This document shows positions 4,469 through 21,141 of a stretch of 23,838 nucleotides of DNA, piece after piece. The notes under the pieces are model-generated. The model saw nothing but the letters and a program-made list of their open reading frames with translations, was not told the origin of the DNA and searched no databases. The DNA lies in contig CALIUX010000197.1 in NCBI GenBank assembly GCA_938048505.1, forward strand, positions 1 to 23,838, in the 5' to 3' direction. How positions within the stretch are numbered: the stretch's first letter is position 1; each line of letters begins with the position of its first letter. The position numbers were made by a program, and so were the translations under genes. The stretch is from an uncultured Pseudomonadales bacterium. Lineage in GTDB: Bacteria; Pseudomonadota; Gammaproteobacteria; Pseudomonadales; Cellvibrionaceae.

Positions 4469-5359
4469 ATGTCTTTTAAAGTATTTTCTTTTAGTTATAT
4501 GGCAGAATCACTGATATTAGTATTGATCGCATGGTCTTTTTTTTCTGATGCAGAAGCGGGTCCTGTAGGGGGACCAGACAAAGTGGCTTCTTGGCGCTAT
4601 CAAGGGCATATTTCTAATGAGTTTAATTACGCCAACTTAGGGCAAGCAGGCTTTAATTCAATATGGAAGCGAGGTTATATCAACTCATCACCAGGCCCCA
4701 ATAGGAGCATCTACAGTGGTGCGCAGGCTTACATTTCAAATGGAGGTCAATTAGCTTTAACTGCGGCACGCCAAGGCAATAGACTTTTTGGTGGCACCGT
4801 ACATTCTAAAAATAAAGTTCGTTATCCCGTCTATGTTGAGGCGCGTGTCAAAGTCAGTAATTCGTCATTGGCATCGAATGTTTGGATGTTGAACTCTCAA
4901 TCAAATCAAGAGATCGATGTTTTAGAGTCATGGGGTAATAAAAATAATCGTTACTTCTCGCGTGTATTACACCTAAGTCATCATATTTTTTGGCGAGATG
5001 GCGAGGCAATCTTAGGTGATTATCAGCCAACGTCGGGCGCAACCTATTATCAAAGACCGAATGGTCAAGGTGATTATGTAGTCTGGCCTGATGATTACCA
5101 TGTGTATGGCATCTTATGGGATGGCCCATATTCATTGCATTACTATATTGATGGGCAATGGGTGAGAACAACGCCGCCAGGTGAAATTGACCCTTATGGA
5201 TGGTCTGCAGGTCTTAACGATAGTATGCATTTAATCCTCAATACCGAAGCGCAAAAATGGCGTGAGTCGCAAGGCATTAACTACTTTAACGATGCATCCG
5301 TATCGGATCCTACTCGTAATACGATGTATGTTGATTGGATTCGTGTTTGGAAGCCTTGA
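4469..5359 (+). CDS. Secreted GH16 family glycoside hydrolase, beta-agarase/porphyranase-like
   Basis: A 296-aa exported single-domain enzyme of glycoside hydrolase family 16, which cleaves beta-1,4 linkages in marine galactans with retention of configuration. Start chosen at the ATG at 4469, after a GGGGGAG purine block; a GTG at 4457 is an in-frame alternative. The signal peptide ends near ...SDAEA. The catalytic E-x-D-x-x-E motif (QEIDVLESWG) has its nucleophile, helper Asp and acid/base at E148, D150 and E153. The agarase-like stretches VYVEARVKVS, HLSHHIFWRD, DYQPTSGA and YVDWIRVWKP are also present. There is no carbohydrate-binding module. It is clearly divergent from the second GH16 enzyme downstream, so its exact galactan (agarose, porphyran or another) is open. 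Intergenic gaps on both sides suggest its own promoter. Confidence 0.87.
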   Translation: MSFKVFSFSYMAESLILVLIAWSFFSDAEAGPVGGPDKVASWRYQGHISNEFNYANLGQAGFNSIWKRGYINSSPGPNRSIYSGAQAYISNGGQLALTAARQGNRLFGGTVHSKNKVRYPVYVEARVKVSNSSLASNVWMLNSQSNQEIDVLESWGNKNNRYFSRVLHLSHHIFWRDGEAILGDYQPTSGATYYQRPNGQGDYVVWPDDYHVYGILWDGPYSLHYYIDGQWVRTTPPGEIDPYGWSAGLNDSMHLILNTEAQKWRESQGINYFNDASVSDPTRNTMYVDWIRVWKP

Positions 5360-5535
5360 TCTACACATGACATGACTTGTTTCTCTAAAATTATCAAAAC
5401 CGTAGCGCAATATAGGATTTGCAGCACACCACCCTTGCATCTATAGCGTTATTATGGCGCCTAATGCATCGGGGTGTATCGCAAGTCTTTATTGCCCCGC
5501 TCTTACATGATATCCGATAGAGCGATTTTCAAAAT

Positions 5536-6627
5536 ATGAGAAACAGCAATACATTACACCCGTTTTTTAATGCAAAGGCGGTTAAAAAGTGCTTGCCTTC
5601 ATTAGCCGTAACAATGAGCTTACTCTTCACTGTTGGCTGCGATGGTGACCCGACTAATAATGAAGTCGACTTGTCGAGTGTTGATCTCGAGAATAGCGTA
5701 GAGGTGATTTGGCCCCAGCGAAACCTTGCTTTTGCAGAGTGCATGGCAATTGCTGCACGCGAAGCGTATTCAGAGTTGAGTGAAACGAAAGGTCGGGTTT
5801 GTGACGAGTTGCTGACAGAACCTTTTGCGCATCTACCACAATACGGAACGGACGTTCTCCGAGTGTTTAAACGCGATGTAGCTGCTAACAATGCTGTACA
5901 TACAGATTTAATTATAGCTTTTACGGGAACGAGAACACCTGATGTAGGTGATATTGCCCGTGACCTCGAAAGCCAAATTCTTCTTAATTATAATAATGAA
6001 TTTGATGCTGACCATGCCGATGCTTTAGCCCTGAGTGGTGAAGAAAAGGTGGGTGGTGGTTTTGATAGCCGCTGGGAAAATCATGCTGCTATTGTGAAAG
6101 ATGCCATCGATTCCATTAGCGTTGAGCCTACTGAATCGGCGCAAATCAAAACACTGTCTATTATCGTAACGGGGCATAGCTTAGGTGCGGCAACAGCTAC
6201 CCGTGCGGCATTTGATTTAGATCGAAGCTTACAGAATAATCGCATTACACTATGGTCATTTAATTCACCTAGAGTCGGTAATGAAGCCTTTGCCCAAGCT
6301 TATACGAATGCAATCACATCATGCTCTGTTATTGACGAGGGTTGTTTTATAGTGCGTCAATTCACTCGCTCGGGTGATCCCATACATAAACTTCCTTTGC
6401 TGATGCATCACCCTATTTGGAACCCGGATCAAGATGAAGAAACGCGCCAGAGCACAGGTGATGTTACACAAAGAACATTAGATTATTGCGCACATTATCA
6501 TGCGCCCAGAGCGAGCACGCTTAATTTGGCTCAAAACCACAAGCTGGATCTTTGGCGTACAAATCTTTATGAAATTCCTTCTGACCACATTGAATGTATG
6601 TTAGGTAAAGATTTCAATAAATTATAA
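5536..6627 (+). CDS. Class-3 lipase-like alpha/beta hydrolase, lipoprotein
   Basis: A 363-aa predicted exported lipoprotein. The N-terminus has basic residues (KK at 17-18), a hydrophobic run and a lipobox-like FTVGC with Cys35. The body matches the Lipase_3 fold: FTGTRT at 129-134 (oxyanion region, usually FRGT), the nucleophile elbow VTGHSLGAA with Ser215, the SFNSPRVGN strand at about 241-249, a GDPIHKLP segment with Asp281, and a C-terminal SDHIEC with His351 as the likely third triad residue. The expected activity is ester hydrolysis (acylglycerols or other esters). It lies between two GH16 genes on the same strand. Whether it acts on algal esters or lipids is not shown. The ribosome binding site before the ATG is weak, but later starts would truncate the signal sequence. 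Confidence 0.8.
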   Translation: MRNSNTLHPFFNAKAVKKCLPSLAVTMSLLFTVGCDGDPTNNEVDLSSVDLENSVEVIWPQRNLAFAECMAIAAREAYSELSETKGRVCDELLTEPFAHLPQYGTDVLRVFKRDVAANNAVHTDLIIAFTGTRTPDVGDIARDLESQILLNYNNEFDADHADALALSGEEKVGGGFDSRWENHAAIVKDAIDSISVEPTESAQIKTLSIIVTGHSLGAATATRAAFDLDRSLQNNRITLWSFNSPRVGNEAFAQAYTNAITSCSVIDEGCFIVRQFTRSGDPIHKLPLLMHHPIWNPDQDEETRQSTGDVTQRTLDYCAHYHAPRASTLNLAQNHKLDLWRTNLYEIPSDHIECMLGKDFNKL

Positions 6628-8718: not shown

Positions 8719-10533
8719 TTAAGGTCGGTTTTTAAGCCAATTTCGCCACCCTTTATATTCACTGATGTTTTGTGCGGCACTTATCGCATAGGCGTCACAA
8801 ATAAAACCACTGATCCACTCGCCCGATGCAAGCTCGACTTTTCCTATACCTAGAGGTGCAGGAATTTGAGTAATAAAGCTGCCTAAATGATGCGTGGGAA
8901 CAGACCAAACCTCGACTTCAATTTCACAACCATCTTTTTCAACGCGAATCATCGCAGGACGTTTGCCGTCGGGTAATGCATATAACGCATAATGCGCTGA
9001 GCTAGTCGTTTGAGATTTGAGTTGACCGCCGCGCTCTGCCAGTTGCCAGTTGAGTGGCTGACCTTCTAGGTGTGCGCCACAGACAACAATATCTGTCAAT
9101 GCGGCTTCTTGCATAGGAAGCGGTAAGCCCGTGGTAGGTGCTTGCTCTAATGAAGGGCTAAAAGGGAGGTTAGCCCCACAAGGTAATTGTGTTTTTTCTT
9201 GCAGCGCTTGAGCAAAATTTAATAATTTAATATCAGAAAAGGCCTGATGGAATAATGTAATACCCCAATGCACACCGCTACTCAATGAACCAATAGGAAC
9301 GGCTGTGGCAGTGTAATCGAGTAAATTCATAAAGTTGGTATAGGTGCCTAAAATAGAATTATTTTTAATAGGCTCTGCGTCAATTTCAGCACGAGTAAAG
9401 ACGGTTGGCGTAGTTGGCGCGATTGCAATATCGACACTTGCAAGAATCTTATCGCATCGGCGCTTCAATTCGGCAAGGCGATACTGCGCGCTAAAGGCAT
9501 CAGACGCTCGCCCGTTGTTGCCATTGCCAATAATCGTTTGAATTTCTGGCAGCATGGTATCTAGCGCAACAGACTGAGTGGCCAGATAGCGCTCAGCAAC
9601 CCAAGGGCCTTCATAAAGCAGCTTGGCTGCTTCAATAAAGGGTGCCATATCAAATGTTATAGCTTGTCCGCCTAATGATTCTAATAATGTAATAGACTTT
9701 TTGAAGAGCGCCTCGCACTCAGTATTGCCAAAAAATTCGGTTTGATTAGGCACGCCAAAGGTAAAGGTCGTTGGTGCTTTACCACTGAAATAGCGCTGGC
9801 GATTATCAAAGCGATTGGGTCGTGCAAAGGCATCATCTGCATCAAAGTGTGCAGCAATATCAAATAGGCTCGCTGCATCATGTGCATTGAGGGTGAATAA
9901 ACTGACGCAATCCAATGTCTTGCATGCCGGTACCACACCGGTACAGCTTAATAGCCCTTTTGTGGGTTTATGGCCAATGAGGTTATTGAGGGCAGCCGGT
10001 ACACGCCCCGAGCCTGCGGTATCGGTACCCAATGCAAAGGTGACTTGCCCTAACGCTGTGGCAATGGCCGAACCGGCACTTGAACCACCTGAAATATAAT
10101 CGCGATTAAAAACGTTTTTACCTTGCCCATAAGGCGAGCGTGTACCCACTAAACCGGTAGCAAATTGGTCAAGGTTGGTCTTACCTAATGGCACTGCACC
10201 AGCGGCAATAAAGCGGGCCACAACATGTGCGCTTTGCTGGGCAGTATGGCGAAACGCCTCGCACCCCGCTGTTGTTGTAATGCCAGCTAGATCAATATTA
10301 TCTTTGATGGCAAAGGGCACGCCATATAAGGGAAGTGTATCGGGGCTTTGGCTCTCAAGCGCCTTAAAATATGGTTCTAATTGTTCTGGTGTGAGCAGTG
10401 TAACCCAGGCGTTGTAATCCTTGCTTTGCAGCGCTTTTTCTCGCAAGCCTAAGATGAGTTCTCGTGGCGTAGCACGGCCCTGAGTATAAACGTGTTTTAA
10501 GTGAGTGAGCGTTAGGTTATCGCAGTTATTCAT
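8719..10533 (-). CDS. atzF: Allophanate hydrolase
   Basis: A 604-aa cytoplasmic amidase that hydrolyses allophanate (N-carboxyurea) to ammonia and CO2, the last step of carboxylase-based urea or guanidine use. The amidase-signature triad is visible: Lys77 in GVPFAIKDN, cis-Ser151 in the GGSSAGSA loop and the nucleophile Ser175 in GTDTAGSGRVPA. The C-terminal ~125 residues (from about 478, DIVVCGAHLEGQPLNWQL onward) form the separate domain found in AtzF/DUR1-type allophanate hydrolases and absent from simple amidases; the full length therefore fits the family. It is the last gene of the operon, 149 bp after the carboxylase, with a strong hairpin in the gap. Its substrate here would be made by the carboxylase and DUF1989 proteins. 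Confidence 0.95.
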   Translation of the reverse strand: MNNCDNLTLTHLKHVYTQGRATPRELILGLREKALQSKDYNAWVTLLTPEQLEPYFKALESQSPDTLPLYGVPFAIKDNIDLAGITTTAGCEAFRHTAQQSAHVVARFIAAGAVPLGKTNLDQFATGLVGTRSPYGQGKNVFNRDYISGGSSAGSAIATALGQVTFALGTDTAGSGRVPAALNNLIGHKPTKGLLSCTGVVPACKTLDCVSLFTLNAHDAASLFDIAAHFDADDAFARPNRFDNRQRYFSGKAPTTFTFGVPNQTEFFGNTECEALFKKSITLLESLGGQAITFDMAPFIEAAKLLYEGPWVAERYLATQSVALDTMLPEIQTIIGNGNNGRASDAFSAQYRLAELKRRCDKILASVDIAIAPTTPTVFTRAEIDAEPIKNNSILGTYTNFMNLLDYTATAVPIGSLSSGVHWGITLFHQAFSDIKLLNFAQALQEKTQLPCGANLPFSPSLEQAPTTGLPLPMQEAALTDIVVCGAHLEGQPLNWQLAERGGQLKSQTTSSAHYALYALPDGKRPAMIRVEKDGCEIEVEVWSVPTHHLGSFITQIPAPLGIGKVELASGEWISGFICDAYAISAAQNISEYKGWRNWLKNRP

Positions 10534-10682: not shown

Positions 10683-13600
10683 TTAGCTGGGTGCCAACCA
10701 AATGACACTTTGGCCTTGAGTAATAGCTTGTCCCTGTTTTTTGAGCACCGTATGAATGCTGCCCGCGGAGGGTGCGGTTATCTCGATTTCCATTTTCATC
10801 GATTCGATAATCGCGACAACATCACCTCGTTCAACCTGATCCCCTGGCTCGACGGATACCTTCCAGACACTCCCCGATGCCGGGCTAGCGATAACTTTGC
10901 AGTTTGAAGGTGCTTGCTCGCTGCTTTGACTTTGCGTGTCTTGTTCCGGCTCTTCGTATGTGAGTTGGCCCGTTTCGCGCCAGTGTGCCAGCTCAGCGTC
11001 AAAGGCCTGTTGGCGAGTAGTTTGAAAGGCGTCGATAGCCCCTTTTTGCTCGCGCATCATGGATTGGTAAGCACCGAGGTCAAATTCGGTTTCTTCTATT
11101 TTTAGGGGGTAACGCCCTAGCGGGAAGCGCTGGCGAATAGTAGCCAGCTCTTCAGCTGACACTTCATAGAATTGTATTTGATCAAAAAAGCGCAATAGCC
11201 AAGGTTGAGTGAATTCCCGCGTTTGATGGTAGCGGTTCCACATCTGCAACGTGCGCCCGACAAACTGGTAACCACCAGGGCCTTCCATGCCGTAAATGCA
11301 AAGATAGGCACCGCCAATCCCCACAGAGTTTTCGGCTGTCCAGGTTCGTGCTGGATTGTATTTTGTTGTCACTAAACGGTGGCGAGGGTCAATGGGCGTC
11401 GCGACTGGAGCGCCAAGGTACACATCCCCAAGCCCCATGACTAAATATCGCGCGCCAAATACGGTCTGTTTAACGGCTTCAATATTGGGTAAACCATTGA
11501 TACGTCGAATGAATTCTAAATTACTCGGGCACCACGGCGCATTAGGTCTGACGGACTGTTCGTATTTTTCGATTGCTTCGCGGCAAGCTGCATCATCCCA
11601 ACTTAGCGGAATGTGCACAATACGTGATGGAATCTTTTGCGGTAGCTCACCGGCCAGTGCGACGGCCCCTTTTTGCACTTGCTTGATAAGCGACTGAGCA
11701 CTGATGATTTGCGCATTGTAATGCAGTTGTAAGGAGCGAATGCCAGGTGTCATTTCGTACAGGCCTTCGAGGCGATTCTCTTCTAGCCATAGCATGAGCG
11801 CATGTATTTTAAAGCGGCGCTCAATATCCAACTCCATGGGGCCGAGCTCGATCAGTAAAAAGTGATCTCCACAGGCTCTAAATACCAGTGGTTCACCTTG
11901 GAAGTCGGCCTCTTTTAAAATGGGTGAACGTAGCGTTTGTGTGACTTCTCCGGCAGGCGCAGGCACAAAGCTATTAGTAAAATGACCTTCTGACAGCCCT
12001 GTGATTTGTTCTGCTTCTATTTGTACTGCTTCTTCAAGCGTAACCGGTACAAAAGAAACGGTCGCACCGGCTTTGAGTTGACCCAAGCGCCAAAGATCTG
12101 CACTGATAACCGTAGCCGGGCAAACAAAGCCACCCAGTGAGGGGCCATCTGGGCCGAGTATGACGGGCATATCCCCCGTGAAATCAATGGCGCCAAATGC
12201 ATACGCGTTATCATGAATATTGGAGGGGTGTAAGCCGGCCTCACCACCTGTATCACGAGCCCATGTTGGCTTAGGGCCAATAAGACGGACGCCAGTACGG
12301 CTTGAGTTGTAATGCACTTCCCACTTGTGCCCAAAAAAGGTCTCGATGTCTTGCTCTGTGAAAAAGTCCGGTGCGCCATGCGGACCATAAATGACGCGCA
12401 AAACCGTATGATTTTGAATGGGTGGTTGTTGCAAAGGGGCTTGTAGGGGAATGCAGTGTGTTGCGTGGTATTCGCTAGACCCCATGGGCAGTGTATCGCC
12501 TGTTGTGAGCGCACGGCCATTGTGGCCGCCAAACTGACCCAGGGTAAAGGTCGAGCGCGACCCTAAGTACTCAGGGCAGGGAATACTGCCTCGAATAGCC
12601 AAATAAGCGCGTGCTCCGGCTGAACTGATTTTACCTAATGTGAGCGTTTGTCCCGATTTAACCGAGTAGGTGCAGTACATTTCAAGGGGTTTATCGCCCA
12701 AGTGAATATCAAGGGTTGCGCCAGTGACTGCAATGATCGTATCACTGTGAAATTTGAGCGTTGGCCCGTTTAATGTGATCTCAAGTGCGGTACAGCGACT
12801 GGCATTACCGACTAAATAGTTAGCTTGCTGGTGTGAAATAGCATCCATCGGCCCTGAGGGTGGAATGCCAACATGCCAATAACCTTGGCGTGCAGGATAG
12901 TCTTGTATGGTGGTTTGTGTGCCGCCATCGAGTACACTAATGGAGCGTGATTTGAAGACAAAGCGCGATAGGCTTCGGGTGAGTAATCCGCCTTGCCGAC
13001 ACGCATCGCTCTGGCTAATGGCTTGCACATAATCGAGATTGGTTTCGATGCCATAGAGTGATGTTTTACTCAGCTGTTCTGACAGTAAACGATTAGACGC
13101 TGCGCGGTCTTCGCCCCAGCAAATGACTTTTGCTAACATCGGATCAAAAAACGCCGGTACATCAATGCCGCTTTCAACCCATGTATCTACACGCGTATGC
13201 TCACCTTGTGCAAAGTCAACCCAAGAGAGTTTACCTGCGCTCGGTAAAAAATTGGCATTGGGGTTTTCGGCATAAATGCGTGCTTGCATGGCATGACCAT
13301 GCGGCTTTAAGCGGCTGTGTAGTTGCTGCAACGGTGCAAGCTGTCTAGCAGCAAGTTTGACCATCCACTCAACTAAGTCCACTTGCCATACAGTTTCGGT
13401 TACACCGTGCTCAACTTGTAAGCGAGTATTCACTTCTAAGAAGTAAAACTCTTTGTCATCATCGTCATAGATAAACTCAACTGTGCCTGCATTACGGTAG
13501 TTGACGGCTTGCGTGAGCTTGATGGCAGTTTTCCACAGCAGGTTGCGTGTGCGATCATCAATATTGGGGGCAGGTGTTTCTTCTAAGACTTTTTGGTTGC

Positions 13601-14297
13601 GGCGCTGGGCCGAGCAGTCGCGCTCACCAAGGTGAACAACTTTACCTTGACCATCACCAAAAATTTGCACTTCGATATGACGCGCATTAACAATAAATTT
13701 TTCTAAGAAGACGCGATCGTTTGAAAAGTAATTAGCGCCTAATCGCTTGACCGTACCCCAAGCATCTTTGAGCTCGTCTTCTGTGCGGCACATTTGCATA
13801 CCAATACCGCCGCCGCCAGCCGTGCTTTTGAGCATGACAGGGTAACCAATGCCATCGGCTGCTGCTAAGGCCTCTTCGAGGCTATCGAGGAGTGGCGAGC
13901 CAGGAATAAGCGGCACATGGTTCTTTTCGGCTAACTCACGCGCGGTATGCTTAAGGCCAAACGCTTTGATTTGCTCGGCCGTAGGCCCAATAAAGATCAG
14001 GCCTTCTGCTTCACAGCGTGTAACAAACTCGGTGTTCTCGCTTAAAAAGCCGTAGCCAGGGTGAATCGCTTCTATGCCTTCTTGCTTGGCAATATCAATA
14101 ATTTTATCGATATTCAGGTACGTATCACTGACGCTACCTTCGCCAAGTGAGATGGCTTTATCGGCTTGTTGTACGTGGAGGGAATCTTGATCGGCCGTAT
14201 GGTAAATCGCTACAGCGGTGATGTTCAGAGTTTTGAGGGTACGAATAATACGCGTCGCAATCGCTCCGCGGTTCGCAATAAGCACTTTAGTAAACAT
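10683..14297 (-). CDS. Biotin-dependent urea-family carboxylase, probably guanidine carboxylase
   Basis: A 1204-aa cytoplasmic enzyme that uses ATP and bicarbonate to carboxylate its substrate on a covalently bound biotin arm. Domains in order: biotin carboxylase (1-450; ATP-grasp Lys157 with glycine loop STAGGGGIG at 158-166, GERDCSAQRRNQK at 224-236, EVNTRLQVEHG at 288-298); KipA/AHS2-type carboxyltransferase half (about 452-760, with GGTQTTIQDYPARQGYW); KipI/AHS1-type half (about 795-1030, with PWCPSNLEFIRRINGLP); and biotinyl domain (about 1130-1204) with the modified Lys1168 in ESMKMEIE. This is the urea carboxylase architecture. Enzymes of this type next to UAAP1/UAAP2 genes are now known to prefer guanidine, giving carboxyguanidine. 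The guanidine-II-type riboswitch in its leader supports that. Substrate choice is inferred; the family is certain. Confidence 0.95.
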   Translation of the reverse strand: MFTKVLIANRGAIATRIIRTLKTLNITAVAIYHTADQDSLHVQQADKAISLGEGSVSDTYLNIDKIIDIAKQEGIEAIHPGYGFLSENTEFVTRCEAEGLIFIGPTAEQIKAFGLKHTARELAEKNHVPLIPGSPLLDSLEEALAAADGIGYPVMLKSTAGGGGIGMQMCRTEDELKDAWGTVKRLGANYFSNDRVFLEKFIVNARHIEVQIFGDGQGKVVHLGERDCSAQRRNQKVLEETPAPNIDDRTRNLLWKTAIKLTQAVNYRNAGTVEFIYDDDDKEFYFLEVNTRLQVEHGVTETVWQVDLVEWMVKLAARQLAPLQQLHSRLKPHGHAMQARIYAENPNANFLPSAGKLSWVDFAQGEHTRVDTWVESGIDVPAFFDPMLAKVICWGEDRAASNRLLSEQLSKTSLYGIETNLDYVQAISQSDACRQGGLLTRSLSRFVFKSRSISVLDGGTQTTIQDYPARQGYWHVGIPPSGPMDAISHQQANYLVGNASRCTALEITLNGPTLKFHSDTIIAVTGATLDIHLGDKPLEMYCTYSVKSGQTLTLGKISSAGARAYLAIRGSIPCPEYLGSRSTFTLGQFGGHNGRALTTGDTLPMGSSEYHATHCIPLQAPLQQPPIQNHTVLRVIYGPHGAPDFFTEQDIETFFGHKWEVHYNSSRTGVRLIGPKPTWARDTGGEAGLHPSNIHDNAYAFGAIDFTGDMPVILGPDGPSLGGFVCPATVISADLWRLGQLKAGATVSFVPVTLEEAVQIEAEQITGLSEGHFTNSFVPAPAGEVTQTLRSPILKEADFQGEPLVFRACGDHFLLIELGPMELDIERRFKIHALMLWLEENRLEGLYEMTPGIRSLQLHYNAQIISAQSLIKQVQKGAVALAGELPQKIPSRIVHIPLSWDDAACREAIEKYEQSVRPNAPWCPSNLEFIRRINGLPNIEAVKQTVFGARYLVMGLGDVYLGAPVATPIDPRHRLVTTKYNPARTWTAENSVGIGGAYLCIYGMEGPGGYQFVGRTLQMWNRYHQTREFTQPWLLRFFDQIQFYEVSAEELATIRQRFPLGRYPLKIEETEFDLGAYQSMMREQKGAIDAFQTTRQQAFDAELAHWRETGQLTYEEPEQDTQSQSSEQAPSNCKVIASPASGSVWKVSVEPGDQVERGDVVAIIESMKMEIEITAPSAGSIHTVLKKQGQAITQGQSVIWLAPS

Positions 14298-14360
14298 TGC
14301 TACCTGTTGGCGGGCCGTCCCGCAACGCTAATACAGCTATCTCAGGTCGTCCTGAGATAG
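14298..14360 (-). promoter_or_regulatory. Guanidine-II (mini-ykkC) riboswitch
   Basis: Read on the minus strand, hairpin P1 has arms CTATCTCAGG (14360-14351) and CCTGAGATAG (14346-14337) closed by the tetraloop ACGA. After a 10-nt linker, hairpin P2 (14326-14306) has arms GTTGCGGG and CCCGCCAAC with one bulged C, closed by the tetraloop ACGG. An AGGTAG ribosome binding site starts immediately after P2, 8 nt before the carboxylase ATG. Two G-C-closed hairpins with ACGR loops placed just upstream of the ribosome binding site are the defining pattern of the guanidine-II class, in which each loop binds guanidinium, the loops kiss through their C-G steps, and translation is switched on. Ligand binding is inferred from this pattern; the structure is seen directly. 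Confidence 0.92.
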
Positions 14361-14448
14361 GGGTTCATCATGTCTTAGAAGTAGTGTAGTTGAAGAGCAT
14401 TATTGTAGTAGAAGTTGTGACAAAAGACCGGCCTTAGATAAAACCGTT

Positions 14449-14467
14449 TGATCTCATAATGGGATCA
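14449..14467. promoter_or_regulatory. Quasi-palindrome, possible operator
   Basis: A 19-bp near-perfect palindrome beginning TGATCTCAT and ending ATGGGATCA, with a single mismatched pair (T/G). It lies between the tandem repeat and the riboswitch, upstream of the carboxylase gene. It could be a repressor operator or a small hairpin. Confidence 0.4.
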
Positions 14468-14483
14468 GTTCATTGGCGCTATG

Positions 14484-14573
14484 TAGCTATTAATTATGTA
14501 GTTCTTAATTATATCGCCTTTAATTGCATAGCTCTTAACTGTGTAGCCTTTAATTATATAGCTCTTAGTTATG
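14484..14573. repeat. Six tandem degenerate 15-bp repeats (minisatellite)
   Basis: Six head-to-tail 15-bp units fill 14484-14573, for example TAGCTATTAATTATG, TAGTTCTTAATTATA and TAGCTCTTAACTGTG. Units with CTCTTA and with CCTTTA alternate over the last four, which gives a 30-bp higher-order period. The array overlaps the stop codon of the second DUF1989 gene and ends about 120 bp before the riboswitch. It is AT-rich and has no obvious coding role. Confidence 0.85.
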
Positions 14574-15213
14574 CATCCCATACAATAAGTTCAACGGGGG
14601 TGGGGTTGTATCCGTTGCAAGGGTTATTCAGCTGTGGGCAGTTTGAGATCAAAATAATAGTATCCATCAATGCCTCAAGCTCGACGTATTTCCCAGCACC
14701 TGAAATCCCATCTTCAAACGTTAGTCCACCCGATGGCGTGACAGGGACATTCATAAAGAAATTAATATTGTGTGTAATATCGTCTTTATCAAGCCCATAT
14801 TGTTCATGCTCTTGAATAGCGAGCATCCAGCTGTCTCGACAGGCATGCATGCAGCGCTTTTCTAAATCATACCGCACAGTATTCGATTCGGTTGCACAAG
14901 CACCGCCAAGGGTATCGTGCCGACCGCAGGTATCGGCTACGATTTTGAGAAGATCATTATTGTCATTGGTTTTGAGTACACTGCCCGTTGTCAGGTACAC
15001 ATTACCTTGCTCACGAATGGTATCCATCGCGCTGTAGCGTTCCGCAGGGTCATTCGCATTGTAAAAGAGCGTATCGGCTGCTTGATTGCCTTCTAAATCT
15101 AAAATGCGAAAGGTAGCACCTTTGGGCACGCGCCCAATAAAGTAGTCTCCAGCATCAATAATATGGCGTTCAGTTGCGTTGAGGCTATCGCGTGAGCTAG
15201 TCGTCAGAGTCAT
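14569..15213 (-). CDS. DUF1989 protein, UAAP2 type; probable carboxyguanidine deiminase subunit
   Basis: A 214-aa member of DUF1989, the urea carboxylase-associated proteins. Conserved blocks seen: [11 protein letters not shown] at 96-106, CMHACRDSW at 121-129, [10 protein letters not shown] at 149-158, and [11 protein letters not shown] at 191-201; the Cys/His content suggests a metal site. In guanidine-degrading bacteria two such proteins (CgdA and CgdB) together deiminate carboxyguanidine to allophanate and ammonia, which links the carboxylase to allophanate hydrolase. Its ATG overlaps the stop codon of the preceding DUF1989 gene by 4 nt (ATGA), so the pair is translationally coupled, as expected for partners. 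Which subunit name applies cannot be told from sequence alone. The stop codon lies inside the 15-bp repeat array. Confidence 0.88.
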
Positions 15214-15929
15214 TTTGGGGCTCCCAAGTGATAAAGGGCGTTGTTGTCAAAGCCCCTTTGATTTTCGGCGCAAGCATTACGGCAAAAGTCATCTTCTGTG
15301 ATGGCGGCAGCGGGGCTCAATGTGAGGCCAACTTGAGATGTTGGGTATTGGCTATCTTGGTTCAGTGGGTGCGGGCAAGTATGCAGTACGACTAATGTAT
15401 CCATTTCAAAGCGCAGCGTGACGCTATCGTTCGCTTGGGCGCGACGTGTCAGCGCCAGTTTGCCGTTTGCATCGCTGCTCACTTCAGAAAACCAATTGAT
15501 ATTCGCTGCCATCGAACGTTTGGTTAAATTGTATTTTGCCAGCTCAACTAAGAAGCTGTCGTAGCCATTTTGTTGCCAGCTGTTGCGTGCTTGCTGGTAA
15601 TCACGGCTTCCCCATTGCGCTTCAACATGGCTTGCATGGCTGTTACCACAGATTGTTTCGTGCCAGCCAAAAGTATCCTCTGTTACCGAACAAAAAATAC
15701 GCCCCATATCGGAATATAAGCAGTGCCCACGTGTCAGCTTAAAGGTATGTTGGCACTTGAGCGTATCGGGTGCATTGTATTTTTCGTTGAGTAATGTGGG
15801 GTTGTAAAACAACATGCCTACATTACTGCCGCCGGTTAAATCGGTTAATTCAAGCTGCATACCGCGCCGGACAACAAGTGACCAGTGGCTGCCAGCATCC
15901 AGTTGGGTTGTATAAGTGTCTGTAATCAT
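15210..15929 (-). CDS. DUF1989 protein, UAAP1 type; probable carboxyguanidine deiminase subunit
   Basis: A 239-aa DUF1989 protein, the longer partner of the pair. Visible family blocks are [21 protein letters not shown] at about 76-96, NINWFSEV at 143-150 and HTCPHPLN at 183-190, each with a counterpart in the next gene, so the two are distant paralogues. Together they are expected to convert carboxyguanidine to allophanate plus ammonia. It starts 15 bp after the ABC ATPase and overlaps its partner by 4 nt, placing transporter and catabolic genes in one operon. Older annotation calls it urea amidolyase-associated protein; the deiminase role comes from knowledge of guanidine-utilising bacteria and was not shown for this protein. 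Confidence 0.88.
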
Positions 15930-15944
15930 GTCTTGGGTGTCGTA

Positions 15945-16799
15945 TTAATTGCTTTTAAGAGCACTTTTAAGAGCCGTGGGCTGTTGCGTGACCGGGTGGC
16001 TGTAAGCCATGTCACTAACGGGTAAATCATAAGTGATTGTCGCACCGTAGCGCTCGGCGTTGTTTGCATCCTCTTTGTCTTTATCAAAGACCCAAAGCCG
16101 GGTGCCCAGATAAAAGCCTTCTTGCAGGTCATGCGTGACCATAAAGACGGTTAATTCATATTCACGCCAAAGCGATAAAATCAGCTTGTGCATATCTTTT
16201 CGGATGCCTGGATCAAGTGCTCCAAACGGTTCATCTAAGAGTAGAACGCTCGGGCGTTTGATCAAGGCTTGGGCAATGGCTAATCGCTGCTGCATGCCCC
16301 CTGATAATTGATGCGGGTATTTATTTTTTGCATCGGTTAAACCGACTGCTTGCAGCCAATGCTCAGCTTGGGCTCTTGCCTGTTTTCTCGCTTGCCCTAA
16401 CAGGCGCCCCCATACTCGGCTTTGGGTAAATTCTAAGCCGATCATAATGTTATCTATGACGCTCAAGTGAGGGAAAACAGAATACTTTTGAAACACTATG
16501 CCGCGTTCTGGTGATGGCTCCTGCGCAATAGGCTTGCCATTAAATAATAGCTGGCCTTCAGTTGGGCTTTCTGTGCCGAGTAACATTTTTAAAAAAGTAC
16601 TCTTTCCACAACCAGATGTCCCAACCAATGTGACGAATTCGCCTGCATTCACGGAAACATTCAAGCCTTCTAAGACGGTATGGTCTCCGTACCGTTTGAC
16701 AATATTATTCGCTATCACCAAAGGTGATGACGATGATGAATGAGAAGCCGACCCTTTGGCTATGGGACTATCCGCTAGATCTGATACGTTTGAAGTCAT
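15945..16799 (-). CDS. ABC transporter ATP-binding protein (guanidine/urea-type uptake)
   Basis: A 284-aa ATPase subunit of the nitrate/taurine/sulfonate-type importer group. Motifs: Walker A GTSGCGKST at 60-68, Q-loop Gln104 in VFQKYSVFPH, signature LSGGMQQR at 165-172, Walker B VLLLDEPFGALD at 185-196, and the H-loop His223 in VTHDLQE. A Ser-rich N-terminal extension of about 25 residues precedes the core fold; a later start is possible. It begins 7 bp after the permease stop and ends 15 bp before the first DUF1989 gene, so it is clearly in the operon. It energises uptake of the substrate delivered by the binding protein encoded upstream, here most likely guanidine or a related amidine. Confidence 0.92.
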   Translation of the reverse strand: MTSNVSDLADSPIAKGSASHSSSSSPLVIANNIVKRYGDHTVLEGLNVSVNAGEFVTLVGTSGCGKSTFLKMLLGTESPTEGQLLFNGKPIAQEPSPERGIVFQKYSVFPHLSVIDNIMIGLEFTQSRVWGRLLGQARKQARAQAEHWLQAVGLTDAKNKYPHQLSGGMQQRLAIAQALIKRPSVLLLDEPFGALDPGIRKDMHKLILSLWREYELTVFMVTHDLQEGFYLGTRLWVFDKDKEDANNAERYGATITYDLPVSDMAYSHPVTQQPTALKSALKSN

Positions 16800-16806
16800 A
16801 AATCGA

Positions 16807-17628
16807 TTACCGCGCTTGGTTTTGGTGGTACCAAGGAAAACTCAACTGGCTTAGTTTGAGTAATAGCCAATCTGAAACAAAAGCGAGAAGGGCAATCCAT
16901 GCGACATAAGGCAAAATGACATCCATTGACATATAACGTCTCACCAAGAAAATGCGATAGCCCAGACCATCAGTTGCTGCGATGGCTTCAGCCGCAATCA
17001 AAAAGAGCCATGCCGTACCCAGTGTGAGACGTACGGCATCAATGAGCCGTGGTGCAATCTGAGGGAGTAAAATACGGTGCAAAATATGAAAACTGTGTGC
17101 GCCTAGCGTTTGTGCCTTGACGAGTTGCTCTGAAGGGATTTCAACAACTCGTTGGTAAAGGTCTCTGGCCATAATGGGCGTAATGCCAATAACGATCAAT
17201 ACAACCTTGGCGGTCTCGCCCAAGCCAAAGACAATAAATAATATAGGTAGAATGGCCATCGGGGGAATGAGTGAGATAGCGGTTATTGTTGGCGTTATAC
17301 CGGCACTAACTAGTGGTATTGCACCGGCTAGTAGTCCCACGGTTAACGCAATGACCGCAGCAATAGAAACGCCCTTGAGTAAGCGAACTAAGCTGCTTTT
17401 GGTATCTTCCCAAAACGGATATTCACCGGTGCGCTTACTGGGTGTTGCGGCAAGCCTAACCATAGCGGTTTTAATTTCGGTAAAGCTAGGGAGAAGTTTA
17501 TCTTGTGGGTTTTCGGCTTTGCGAGCACTGGATGCTGCTTGATAGATAAATAATGCAACAATGAAAGGGAGGAGACCTAAGCACAGTGCTAGCCATTTGG
17601 TGGGGCGTTTATTGATCAATTTAGTCAT
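16807..17628 (-). CDS. ABC transporter permease (guanidine/urea-type uptake)
   Basis: A 273-aa inner-membrane permease of the binding-protein-dependent family (SsuC/TauC/NrtB-like). Hydrophobic segments are visible at about 10-30, 90-110, 112-138, 140-152, 205-225 and 237-256. The cytoplasmic EAA-type loop that contacts the ATPase is seen as SEQLVKAQTLGAHSFHI, then LHRILLPQIAPRL, near residues 168-197. It lies 411 bp downstream of the binding-protein gene, a large gap filled by three hairpins, and only 7 bp from the ATPase gene. Probably a homodimer in the complete importer. The substrate is inferred from the operon. Confidence 0.9.
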   Translation of the reverse strand: MTKLINKRPTKWLALCLGLLPFIVALFIYQAASSARKAENPQDKLLPSFTEIKTAMVRLAATPSKRTGEYPFWEDTKSSLVRLLKGVSIAAVIALTVGLLAGAIPLVSAGITPTITAISLIPPMAILPILFIVFGLGETAKVVLIVIGITPIMARDLYQRVVEIPSEQLVKAQTLGAHSFHILHRILLPQIAPRLIDAVRLTLGTAWLFLIAAEAIAATDGLGYRIFLVRRYMSMDVILPYVAWIALLAFVSDWLLLKLSQLSFPWYHQNQAR

Positions 17629-17768
17629 AGAGATAACATCTAAAATAAGCTCTATTCCGTTGTAAGCTTACCCATACTCACTGATATGTTGGTTGTTGGT
17701 GTTGGCTTCTCGCCTAGAGCGGCTGCACATGATTAATAGGCAATATCTATGTGTCAGGGCAACCTAAT

Positions 17769-17785
17769 CTGTCGAGGGACGACAG
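17769..17785. other. Small hairpin upstream of permease gene
   Basis: Arms CTGTCG and CGACAG with a 5-nt loop, in the 411-bp gap between the binding-protein and permease genes. No T-tract, so not an intrinsic terminator. Its function is unknown. Confidence 0.45.
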
Positions 17786-17838
17786 TAGCATGATGCCTAC
17801 GAGAACACGATGCTTTTTAGAGTCATGTTCGTTAGTCG

Positions 17839-17864
17839 GTGACCAATGCAGCCTTATTGGTCAC
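17839..17864. other. Hairpin in the gap between binding protein and permease
   Basis: Arms GTGACCAAT (17839-17847) and ATTGGTCAC (17856-17864) are perfect 9-bp inverse complements. It sits just after the terminator-like hairpin in the direction of transcription. Possibly an mRNA-processing or stability element. Confidence 0.5.
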
Positions 17865-17875
17865 AAAATGCATCA

Positions 17876-17914
17876 GCCATAAAAAAGCACTCATAAAGAG
17901 TGCTTTTTTATGGC
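17876..17914 (-). terminator. Strong hairpin after the binding-protein gene (partial terminator)
   Basis: Arms of 17 bp, perfectly complementary (GCCATAAAAAAGCACTC and its inverse), around the loop ATAAA. A run of six T follows the GC-rich core GCACTC on either strand. Placed between the periplasmic binding-protein gene and the rest of the operon, it would let only part of transcription continue and stabilise the 3' end of the binding-protein mRNA, which is the usual way such operons make excess binding protein. Confidence 0.85.
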
Positions 17915-18039
17915 TGTTTTTTAACCTTGCTTGCAAGAAAGTGCTTAACAATGTGGCAGTTGATGCAGCTGAGTTAGTAAGACCCAATCGCTCAGCTTAA
18001 GTATTAAGCTTTAACAATCTGCCACAATCGTCGTTAAGC

Positions 18040-19089
18040 TTATAGCTTGCCTTTAGCAGCCATTTCCATATAGGTTGGATCAAAGCGCAGCTTAACATTT
18101 TTAGGGTTACCAAAAACGCCGGCTGGTGTTTCGATACCAATGAACTTCTCATCAGGCGCGCCTTCACCGAGCAAGCCGTGGTCAAACGAGAACTTTGCTA
18201 CATATTCCATTGTTTTGACGAGGTCTTTACTCTTAACAAACTTAACCGCGTCTTTTGCTTTGTAGAACATTTTGGTTGAGTCGAGCTGTGACTCATAGCC
18301 TGCTAAGTCAGTACCAGACGCTTTACCCATATGTTCACGTACTTTGGCATCCTTGTTCATAGAGGCCATGATTTCATACCAAGCGCCTACTAAGGCTTTA
18401 CCAAAGTTGGGGTTCTCTTTTAATGTCTTAGTATTCACCATCAAAGTATCGATGATTTCACCTGGGATCTGTGAGCTATCGAATACTTTGTTGCTTTTTG
18501 GCATAGCCAAGATTTCAGAAACGAGAGGGTTCCAAGTCGTTACAGCAGTAACGTCTTTGGTTGTGTAGGCCGCTACTAAATCTGCATCAGAGGTATTCAC
18601 AACTTTGATGTCTTTTTCAGAAAGGCCAACGCTCTCAAGACCGCGTGCAAGTAAGTAGTGAGAAACACTCAGTTCAACCAAGTTGACCGTCTGGCCTTTG
18701 ATATCTTTCAGTTTCTTTTTATCTTTTAAGATAACGGCATCGTTACCATTAGAAAAGTCACCGACAATCAAAGCCGTTGTATCAATACCACTTGCAGATG
18801 GAATAGTCAGCGCATCCATATTGGTCATGGTGCAGCCATCAAAACCGCCGGCGGTATATTGGTTGATTGATTCGATGTAATCGTTGATTTGTACAACATC
18901 AATATCAATGCCGTAACGTTTTGCCCACTTGTCGATGATGCCGTTCGTATCACCGTACTCCCAAGGCATCCAACCAACATAAATTGACCAACAAATTTTA
19001 AACTTGTCTTTTGCTAATGCAGGTTGCGCTGCTACTGCAAGAAACAACGACATAATAATGACCGAAGACTTAAGCATTCGCTTGAACAT
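18040..19089 (-). CDS. Periplasmic substrate-binding protein of ABC importer (guanidine/urea-type)
   Basis: A 349-aa exported binding protein, first gene of the operon. The signal peptide (MFKRMLKSSVIIMSLFLAVA, then AQPALA) is cut before KDKFKICW. The mature protein begins with FKICWSIYVGWMPWEYGD and continues as a two-lobed fold of the nitrate/sulfonate/taurine (NMT1-like) group; it belongs to the subfamily usually named putative urea ABC transporter binding protein because it travels with urea carboxylase genes. In this setting the more likely ligand is guanidinium, but no ligand residues were assigned. An AAAAGGA site lies 10 nt before the ATG. A candidate sigma-54 promoter sits about 310 bp upstream and a strong hairpin follows the stop codon. 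Confidence 0.9.
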   Translation of the reverse strand: MFKRMLKSSVIIMSLFLAVAAQPALAKDKFKICWSIYVGWMPWEYGDTNGIIDKWAKRYGIDIDVVQINDYIESINQYTAGGFDGCTMTNMDALTIPSASGIDTTALIVGDFSNGNDAVILKDKKKLKDIKGQTVNLVELSVSHYLLARGLESVGLSEKDIKVVNTSDADLVAAYTTKDVTAVTTWNPLVSEILAMPKSNKVFDSSQIPGEIIDTLMVNTKTLKENPNFGKALVGAWYEIMASMNKDAKVREHMGKASGTDLAGYESQLDSTKMFYKAKDAVKFVKSKDLVKTMEYVAKFSFDHGLLGEGAPDEKFIGIETPAGVFGNPKNVKLRFDPTYMEMAAKGKL

Positions 19090-19412
19090 GGGTTTCTTAT
19101 CCTTTTAAAAAATATAATTAAAGAGGTTAGTGATTTGAGAGGTACTTTAAATTACCGTTAATTATTTTGTTGGTGCTTTTATCTCGTCGTGCAGCAATTA
19201 TGTCAAGTGATTATTTATTACAGCGCCAAAAGGAGAATAAACAAGCCGGCCCATCAAAGCTTAAAATTCAACCCGCTTATATTCATTATTACTTCTAGTG
19301 ATAGTGAATAATATGCACCCTAAATTGCTTGCATTAATGAGTATACTGGTGGCGCCAAAGAGTGCTTTTTGGTGGGTTAATTGCCTATGCGGCGCCTGAA
19401 TAATCATTCATG

Positions 19413-19430
19413 AAGCACGGCATATGCCAA
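19413..19430 (-). promoter_or_regulatory. Candidate sigma-54 promoter of the guanidine operon
   Basis: On the minus strand TTGGCAT and GTGCTT are placed so that the diagnostic GG and GC dinucleotides are exactly 10 nt apart, as in the -24/-12 elements of RpoN promoters. The predicted start is near 19403, about 310 bp before the binding-protein ATG. A possible NtrC-like half-dyad with GCACC and GGGC lies at 19515-19529, about 120 bp upstream of that start. A perfect TATAAT at 19430-19435 with TTGGCT 16 bp upstream offers an alternative sigma-70 reading. Confidence 0.5.
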
Positions 19431-19431
19431 T

Positions 19432-19460
19432 TATAAAAAAGGCTTCAAACAAGCCAAAAT
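19432..19460 (-). terminator. Terminator-like hairpin upstream of the operon promoter
   Basis: On the minus strand GGCTT and AAGCC form a 5-bp stem with a 5-nt loop followed by six T. It is short, and the same bases could instead belong to a sigma-70 promoter ending in TATAAT. If real, it would shield the operon from upstream transcription. Confidence 0.35.
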
Positions 19461-20132
19461 GCCCCGATAATGCAGTAAATGTTTACCATTTTGAGCCCTT
19501 TCTCTGCTTGCTTTGCCCTATTATGGTGCTAGATGATCGAATTCATTCCCGTTACGAAGTCTTAAGTTCGGCCTTTAGTTGATTCATCAATAAGTTATGG
19601 TGTGTGAAAAAAATAATGACTTTTTTGTGTCACACTCATTATTTCAAAAGCCCCTACTTACTGTTGAAATCAGTTCAATAATTTAACCTTTAAGTACTCA
19701 TTTTGATCTTGTTGGGTGTATTTTGATCCTTTGTGATGCGGTTATCATTTTTGCAAAGGGGCTGATTTTTTGAGCCAAAAAGACAGCCTAGGCCGGAGTT
19801 TAAAGAAAATGAGCGCGGGTGTTTTTGAGCAATTTTTCTAGTGCAATTTTTCTGGTAGTAGGGGCGAAGTTTCTATCAGTCAGTAAGGCTGGCCTTAATT
19901 AAATAGTTGGCACCGGATTGGGGGGAGACAAGTTGATGCTTAGTGTTAAATATCCACTATTTGTTAGATTTTTGATGATTGGATTGCACCAAATGCGCTT
20001 GTGTGGGTCTGCTTTGAGGTAAATTAGCAGGTGATAACCCCGCTTTTTGCCGTGCTGACGCATTACCGTCTTTATTTGACGGTGTCTGTTATCATCGGCT
20101 TTATCTCTGTATTGTGACGTGGTGTGAGTGGC
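19461..20132. other. Long gene-free region between guanidine operon and hemC
   Basis: Part of a 1.1-kb stretch without genes. It holds two overlapping hairpins at 19602-19644 (arms GTGTGA with TCACAC, and AAATAATGA with TCATTATTT) and two copies of TTTTGATC near 19700-19730. No tRNA or coding frame with a ribosome binding site was recognised. Confidence 0.4.
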
Positions 20133-20161
20133 TTGCTCTACTGTACGCCACGTTTCATATA
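20133..20161 (+). promoter_or_regulatory. Possible sigma-70 promoter of hemC
   Basis: TTGCTC (20133-20138) and CATATA (20156-20161) are 17 bp apart, 41 bp before the hemC ATG. The -10 match is only moderate. An inverted pair GTGG/CCAC flanks the region. Confidence 0.3.
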
Positions 20162-20202
20162 CCCTATCAACTTTTATTGCTTAATTATGTAAGGTTCCGT
20201 TT

Positions 20203-21141
20203 ATGACCTCGCCTCTCACCCTCCGTATTGCAACTCGAAAAAGTGCCTTAGCCCTTTGGCAAGCTGAGTATGTTAAAGCTCGCCTTGAGGGCTTGCACAG
20301 TCATATTACGGTCGAGCTAGTCCCTATGGTGAGTCGCGGAGACAAAATCCTTGATGTACCGCTTGCTAAAGTGGGGGGTAAAGGCCTATTCGTAAAAGAA
20401 CTAGAGCATGCCCTACTCAATCATGAGGCCGATATTGCCGTTCACTCGATGAAAGACGTGCCGATGGAGTTCCCTGAGGGTTTAGGGTTATCGGTTATTT
20501 GCGAGCGCGAAGACCCGCGTGATGCTTGGGTGTCAAATACCTTTGATAGCCTGGAGTCTCTACCCGAGGGCAGTATTGTTGGTACCTCAAGCTTACGCCG
20601 CCAAAGCCAACTCATGGCGCGCCGCCCCGACCTCAAAATCAAATTTCTAAGAGGCAATGTGAATACCCGCTTGGCAAAACTTGATGCGGGTGAATATGAC
20701 GGCATTATTCTGGCTGCGGCAGGTTTGATTCGACTGGAAATGCCTGATCGTATTCGCCAATTTATTTCGCCTGAAGAGAGCCTTCCGGCAGGTGGTCAAG
20801 GTGCGGTAGGTATTGAATGCCGAATGGATGATCAGCAAACAATTGATTTAATCAAACCGCTGCATCATACCGTCACGGCTGAGCAAGTTTTGGCAGAGCG
20901 TGCGCTCAACCGCCGATTAGAAGGCGGGTGCCAAGTGCCCATTGCTTGTTATGCTATTCAGAAAGACAACCAGTTATGGTTGCGTGGCTTAGTCGCTGAT
21001 CCTGATGGAAGCAAAGTCATTTATGATGAAATCACCGGCTCACCCGCCGAGGCTGAAGTCATGGGCGTTACATTGGCTGAGAGGCTTCTTGATAGCGGTG
21101 CAGATGCGATCTTGAAAGCCGTATATGCTGGAGCTAACTAG
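20203..21141 (+). CDS. hemC: Porphobilinogen deaminase (hydroxymethylbilane synthase)
   Basis: A 312-aa cytoplasmic enzyme of tetrapyrrole synthesis that joins four porphobilinogen molecules into hydroxymethylbilane. Family motifs: [13 protein letters not shown] at 8-20, HSMKDVP at 81-87 with catalytic Asp85, [11 protein letters not shown] at 127-137, RGNVNTRL at 150-157, and the cofactor attachment site LEGGCQVP at 239-246, where Cys243 carries the dipyrromethane primer. The length is normal. An AAGG site lies just before the ATG. Unlike the common gammaproteobacterial hemC-hemD-hemX-hemY order, no hemD follows; the next gene is convergent. The product feeds haem, sirohaem and cobalamin synthesis. 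Confidence 0.97.

What the first reader, a model, noticed from the sequence alone, without database searches (positions are those of the whole stretch)
14298..14360. Guanidine-II riboswitch inside an operon, in front of the 'urea' carboxylase
Two hairpins with G-C-closed ACGA and ACGG tetraloops, joined by a 10-nt linker, lead directly into the ribosome binding site of the carboxylase gene. This matches the guanidine-II (mini-ykkC) class closely. Guanidine-II elements are better known in front of transporter genes such as SugE/Gdx; here it sits internally, after transporter and deiminase genes, so it would tune only the ATP-consuming carboxylase (and perhaps allophanate hydrolase) by guanidine.
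Basis: partly seen in the sequence, partly recalled or inferred. Interest (0 to 1): 0.82.

Follow-up and report, generated by a model that had tools for sequence, protein, structure and literature searches.

The report
Guanidine riboswitch before guanidine carboxylase gene
A short RNA switch of a kind known to sense guanidine sits inside a guanidine-breakdown operon just ahead of its key enzyme gene; this layout is already known in related bacteria, and the slightly unusual point here is that the second guanidine switch normally found at the head of the operon is not recognisable.

Summary
Rfam's Guanidine-II model matches 14358-14310 (-) end to end (42.3 bits, cut-off 32). P1 is 14360-14337 (10 bp, loop ACGA), P2 14323-14310 (5 bp, loop ACGG); P2 ends 12 nt before the ATG of the 'urea' carboxylase. 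That enzyme has the aspartate (D705) reported for guanidine carboxylases, not the asparagine of urea carboxylases. Two such hairpins precede the carboxylase in 63 of 67 same-family loci and 70 of 74 named loci. An internal Guanidine-II between cgdB and gca is already published, with in-line probing in Vreelandella (PMC12508155) and reported in enterobacteria (PMC12186494), so this is a new member of a known arrangement. Two smaller points: the Guanidine-I switch that heads 53 of 53 same-transporter loci of the family and 78 of 80 named loci is not recognisable here; and carboxylase leaders as a group lack the linker pairing to the ribosome site seen in exporter (SMR) leaders, so the published anti-Shine-Dalgarno model finds no support for this gene class. 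Ligand binding and direction of control are inferred, not shown.

The parts
14337..14360 (-). P1 hairpin of Guanidine-II, 10 bp, loop ACGA
14324..14336 (-). linker, 13 nt
14310..14323 (-). P2 hairpin of Guanidine-II, 5 bp (8 with a bulged C), loop ACGG
14302..14305 (-). weak Shine-Dalgarno-like AGGT before the carboxylase ATG
10683..14297 (-). carboxylase annotated as urea carboxylase (TIGR02712), guanidine type by D705
8719..10533 (-). allophanate hydrolase
   Evidence: TIGR02713, 708.8 bits
14569..15213 (-). UAAP2, carboxyguanidine deiminase subunit (cgdB position)
   Evidence: TIGR03424
15210..15929 (-). UAAP1, carboxyguanidine deiminase subunit (cgdA position)
   Evidence: TIGR03425
15945..16799 (-). 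ABC transporter ATPase
16807..17628 (-). ABC transporter permease
18040..19089 (-). ABC substrate-binding protein (TIGR03427), putative guanidine importer component
19090..19260 (-). leader of the first gene; Guanidine-I, present here in most relatives, is not recognisable

Best explanation
A Guanidine-II (mini-ykkC) riboswitch in the cgdB-gca leader of a guanidine-assimilation operon (importer, carboxyguanidine deiminase, guanidine carboxylase, allophanate hydrolase). Guanidinium is expected to dock the ACGA and ACGG loops as a kissing pair and raise translation of the ATP-consuming carboxylase, perhaps with allophanate hydrolase. Shown here: the RNA element, its conservation, the gene order and the guanidine-type active-site residue. 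Inferred from published members of the class: the ligand, the docking and the ON direction. How docking would free the ribosome site of carboxylase leaders I found neither in my tests nor in the passages I read.
For: Rfam 42.3 bits against a cut-off of 32. Two ACGR hairpins before gca in 63 of 67 family loci and 70 of 74 named loci. In 119 distinct leaders the loop-closing pair is G-C in all, and P1 pairs 3-6 occur as G-C, C-G, A-T and T-A (the rule imposes the ACGR loop and four pairs, not their variety). Asp at position 705 here and in 135 of 135 carboxylases from such loci, Asn in 26 of 26 carboxylases of a second group without a listed riboswitch, aligned with N1330 of K. lactis urea amidolyase 5i8i. 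Precedent: Guanidine-II before gca binds guanidine with KD 93 uM in V. boliviensis (PMC12508155, passages).
Against: No binding or expression data for this RNA. Nearest-neighbour folding shows little change in the opening cost of the ribosome site when P1 and P2 are locked (98 of 119 leaders tested). Linker complementarity to the P2-start stretch is below shuffles in carboxylase leaders. A 303-nt fold is not better than shuffles.
Confidence: 0.93

Rival explanations
1. The element is a decayed relic in an operon that has become constitutive.
For: Guanidine-I at the operon head is not recognisable in this genome, so guanidine control may be fading.
Against: Both loops, their G-C closing pairs, the spacing and a 10-bp P1 are intact.
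Confidence: 0.04
2. It is the 5' leader of a separate gca-atzF transcript from a promoter in the 271-nt cgdB-gca gap, not an internal switch of a long mRNA.
For: The gap is AT-rich with about six 15-bp repeats; a strong terminator-like hairpin lies further up, between the first two genes.
Against: No promoter-like site was listed on the - strand of the gap by a simple consensus scan; the gap length is not exceptional, relatives run from about 65 to about 300 nt by tblastn ends, one about 1.1 kb.
Confidence: 0.2
3. The natural ligands include substituted guanidines such as methylguanidine as well as guanidine.
For: The Vreelandella gca leader binds guanidine and methylguanidine alike (PMC12508155); Guanidine-II tolerates some variants (PMC5486947).
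Against: No gene lies between gca and atzF here (149 nt), so no mgdH/mgdL at the place they occupy in Vreelandella.
Confidence: 0.3

Closest known systems
Vreelandella boliviensis guanidine carboxylase operon (PMC12508155, passages read)
   Same: Guanidine-II in the cgdB-gca gap; importer, cgdA/B, gca and atzF in the operon
   Different: There a Guanidine-I heads the operon and mgdH/mgdL lie between gca and atzF; neither is seen here
Guanidine operons of Raoultella, Erwinia and Klebsiella (review PMC12186494, passages read)
   Same: Guanidine-II directly before carboxylase and allophanate hydrolase, after importer and deiminase genes
   Different: A Guanidine-I is associated with importer and deiminase genes there
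Guanidine-II before SMR exporters (sugE/gdx), e.g. P. aeruginosa (PMC9561414, passages read)
   Same: Same aptamer with two ACGR hairpins
   Different: SMR leaders have a pyrimidine-richer linker that pairs better with the stretch before the start (median -6.95 against -3.5 kcal/mol, 48 and 153 leaders)

Membership tests
Guanidine-II (mini-ykkC, RF01068) | Covariance-model score above Rfam's gathering score | tested here: met
   42.3 against 32 bits, model positions 1-48 of 48
Guanidine-II (mini-ykkC, RF01068) | Two G+C-rich hairpins with ACGR loops closed by G-C | tested here: met
   ACGA and ACGG, GG-CC next to each loop
Guanidine-II (mini-ykkC, RF01068) | Loops and closing pair kept in relatives while the stems vary by paired changes | tested here: met
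   63 of 67 and 70 of 74 loci, overlapping sets; pair types in 119 distinct leaders
Guanidine-II (mini-ykkC, RF01068) | Close to the ribosome site of a guanidine efflux or guanidine-modifying gene | tested here: met
   12 nt before gca, which has the guanidine-type D705
Guanidine-II (mini-ykkC, RF01068) | Binds guanidinium with loop-loop docking | not testable with these tools
   needs in-line probing or ITC
Guanidine-II (mini-ykkC, RF01068) | Ligand exposes the Shine-Dalgarno site (translational ON switch) | tested here: inconclusive
   no support from folding or complementarity; these methods do not model docking
Guanidine-I (RF00442) at the operon head | Covariance-model match in front of the first transporter gene | tested here: not met
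   no Rfam match up to E 10 in 14000-20300; own model R1 gives 3.9 bits there, E 0.3 in 801 bases, 9th of the 10 matches listed for the whole window

The most novel reading that the evidence does not exclude
Guanidine-II comes in two expression-platform types: exporter leaders whose linker (with the P1 strand) pairs with the ribosome site, and carboxylase leaders (this one) most of which do not and must work by another route, for instance docked hairpins acting on the 30S footprint, RNA decay or Rho. In this genome, and in two others (L156, L165), the operon-head Guanidine-I has gone or decayed, so that the second type alone would carry guanidine control of the pathway.
Probability: 0.3. Interest if true: 0.5.

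Novelty: new member of a known kind. Interest (0 to 1): 0.3.

Why it matters
It adds a clear gammaproteobacterial example of the guanidine operon with an internal switch, and a natural case in which the operon-head switch is unrecognisable while the internal one is intact. Such a locus would let one measure what the internal Guanidine-II does by itself, which two-switch operons do not allow. The contrast between exporter and carboxylase leaders asks whether the anti-Shine-Dalgarno mechanism, tested on an exporter leader (P. aeruginosa, PMC9561414), holds for the carboxylase half of the class.

Tried and rejected
Chance hairpins: rejected. A true urea carboxylase: rejected by D705, with a second group of carboxylases as internal control. 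Guanidine-I elsewhere in the window: none at Rfam's gathering score, none up to E 10 in 14000-20300, no convincing match with model R1 without filters (best 10.9 bits, E 0.18, at 21127 on the + strand, away from the leader). A Guanidine-I relic at 19191-19175: a 17-nt resemblance with 2 mismatches (0.04 expected in the window at up to 3 mismatches; 8 such places in the genome against 3 for the reversed pattern) that the covariance model does not support. I chose those 17 nt after seeing the resemblance by eye, and a 22-nt pattern found nothing, so the match is selected and remains unproven. Mechanism tests without result: opening cost of the ribosome site with hairpins free or locked (98 of 119 leaders with a recognisable site); 5'-flank (P0-type) pairing, not above shuffles in either class, although single leaders can form one (this window: -5.4 kcal/mol). 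Against a strict two-type reading: 53 of 153 carboxylase leaders still have a flank or linker pairing of -6 kcal/mol or better, against 37 of 48 exporter leaders, and the excess over shuffles in exporter leaders is only 2 sd.

Full report
What is there. On the - strand, the 63 nt before the start codon of a 1204-aa biotin-dependent carboxylase hold two hairpins with ACGA and ACGG loops (14360-14337, 14323-14310), a 13-nt linker and 12 nt with a weak AGGT site. Rfam's Guanidine-II model matches end to end at 42.3 bits, cut-off 32; nothing else in the window reaches a gathering score. Two of 20,000 dinucleotide shuffles of the 140-nt leader give two such hairpins.

The operon. Substrate-binding protein, permease, ATPase, two UAAP-type subunits, carboxylase and allophanate hydrolase run in one direction from 19089 to 8719. 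UAAP1/UAAP2 I take, from recall, as the carboxyguanidine deiminase subunits called cgdA/cgdB in PMC12508155 (passages). The carboxylase has Asp at position 705, where 26 of 26 carboxylases of a second group in the same family have Asn and 135 of 135 from guanidine-type loci have Asp (the 135 include genomes present in both sets, and 13 of 148 loci gave no full frame and were dropped). The residue aligns with N1330 of K. lactis urea amidolyase 5i8i. PMC12186494 (passages) states that Asp marks guanidine and Asn urea carboxylases. None of the Guanidine-II places lies next to those 26 genes (compared by eye).

Comparative evidence. Of 144 genomes of the family, 65 have a Guanidine-II match at E 0.001 (46 over the cut-off), 63 a Guanidine-I match and 71 a carboxylase over the cut-off. 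I fetched 68 carboxylase loci. The gene start is included in 67; in 63 of these two ACGR hairpins of 3 bp or more lie within 140 nt before it. The exceptions: L077 (none), L078 (P1 and P2 about 170 nt apart, with an inverted repeat between), L127 (second loop ACGC) and L134 (Guanidine-II in front of cgdA instead). Of 80 named loci found with the substrate-binding protein (a capped list of the best 80), 74 include the carboxylase start and 70 of these have both hairpins; L158, L168 and L209 show one and L192 none. The sets overlap: contig lengths of L163, L166, L187 and L209 equal those of G086, G051, G137 and G062. By these names the family includes Microbulbifer, Marinagarivorans, Teredinibacter and Marinimicrobium; from recall I take it to be GTDB Cellvibrionaceae. 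Among 119 distinct leaders the loop-closing pair is always G-C, and P1 pairs 3 to 6 are spread over G-C, C-G, A-T and T-A. The rule itself demands an ACGR loop and four pairs, so only the success rate and the variety of pair types are evidence.

Known or new. PMC12508155 describes this position, an internal Guanidine-II between cgdB and gca, with in-line probing (KD 93 uM guanidine, 83 uM methylguanidine), and PMC12186494 reports it for Raoultella, Erwinia and Klebsiella (passages). The arrangement is known; this is a new member.

What differs here: no recognisable Guanidine-I. All 53 family loci whose substrate-binding protein is of this type carry a Guanidine-I core upstream of gca, as do 78 of 80 named loci before that gene. 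Of nine family loci with another type of substrate-binding protein, three have it and six do not; of six without a detected one, one has it and five do not, four of these with truncated contigs. In the window neither Rfam nor a lineage model built from 22 relatives and run without filters finds one in the leader. A 17-nt stretch 85 nt before the first gene resembles the core, at about the usual distance, but it scores only 3.9 bits and I do not claim it as a relic. Two named loci, L156 and L165, also lack Guanidine-I at the gathering score while keeping Guanidine-II. L165 keeps a 5' piece (18.4 bits, E 0.008); L156 has no model match in its leader, only a short 5' stretch seen by eye against its relatives L150 and L157. 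The held genome is a 72.5% complete assembly, so an assembly error cannot be excluded.

How it works. By class knowledge guanidinium docks the loops and raises translation. Published models put an anti-Shine-Dalgarno in the linker (PMC9094411) or in flank plus linker (P0 helix, PMC9561414; passages); the leader tested in PMC9561414 controls an exporter. I compared 48 distinct exporter (SMR) leaders with 153 distinct carboxylase leaders, from 117 loci (11 of them unclassified) plus the first set. Linker pairing to the stretch before the start is -7.35 kcal/mol in SMR leaders (shuffles -6.69 +/- 0.33) and -3.87 in carboxylase leaders (shuffles -4.19 +/- 0.13): weakly enriched in the first, below shuffles in the second (the first run on 119 leaders gave 60 of 60 shuffles at or below the observed energy). 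The classes differ at p = 3e-8, not corrected for relatedness. A ribosome-site motif is present in 46 of 48 SMR but 90 of 153 carboxylase leaders. Locking the hairpins changes the opening cost little, and 5'-flank pairing is not above shuffles. Against a strict split, 53 of 153 carboxylase leaders still reach -6 kcal/mol with flank or linker, against 37 of 48 SMR leaders. The platform of carboxylase leaders is therefore unresolved; the ON direction stays an inference.

Verdict. Observation confirmed, interpretation supported, novelty low. What is worth following is the difference in platform and what an isolated internal switch does.

Noticed in passing
window 14480-14573: About six imperfect 15-bp repeats in the cgdB-gca gap; a 16-nt probe for the unit (1 mismatch) matches only here in the held genome.
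   Followed up: partly
window 14429-14446: A terminator-like stem with T-rich tail on the - strand between cgdB and the riboswitch; the scan found 17 such sites against 13.7 expected, so it may be chance.
   Followed up: no
window 17874-17916: Perfect 19-bp inverted repeat between substrate-binding protein and permease genes, terminator-like on both strands; its core occurs once in the held genome.
   Followed up: partly
window 19175-19191: 17 nt resembling the Guanidine-I core before the first gene; not supported by the covariance model.
   Followed up: yes
L076 5206-7203 (G112): A second Guanidine-II (41.7 bits) stands before a fatty-acid-desaturase-family gene and a TIM-barrel gene, beside creatininase and glutamine-synthetase-like genes; the desaturase-family gene was found in 1 of 148 loci. 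Possibly a membrane hydroxylase for substituted guanidines.
   Followed up: partly
L078 8650-9034 (G062): P1 and P2 of the gca Guanidine-II lie about 170 nt apart with an inverted repeat between them, which might still bring the hairpins together.
   Followed up: no
L134 (G123): Guanidine-II sits before cgdA rather than gca, with Guanidine-I at the operon head.
   Followed up: no
L071 about 4560-5780 (G056, same genus): The substrate-binding protein gene is interrupted near its 3' end by an insertion of about 1.2 kb that looks transposase-like by eye (not tested).
   Followed up: no
L156 and L165, leaders of the first gene: Guanidine-I missing or partly deleted with Guanidine-II intact downstream.
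   Followed up: yes
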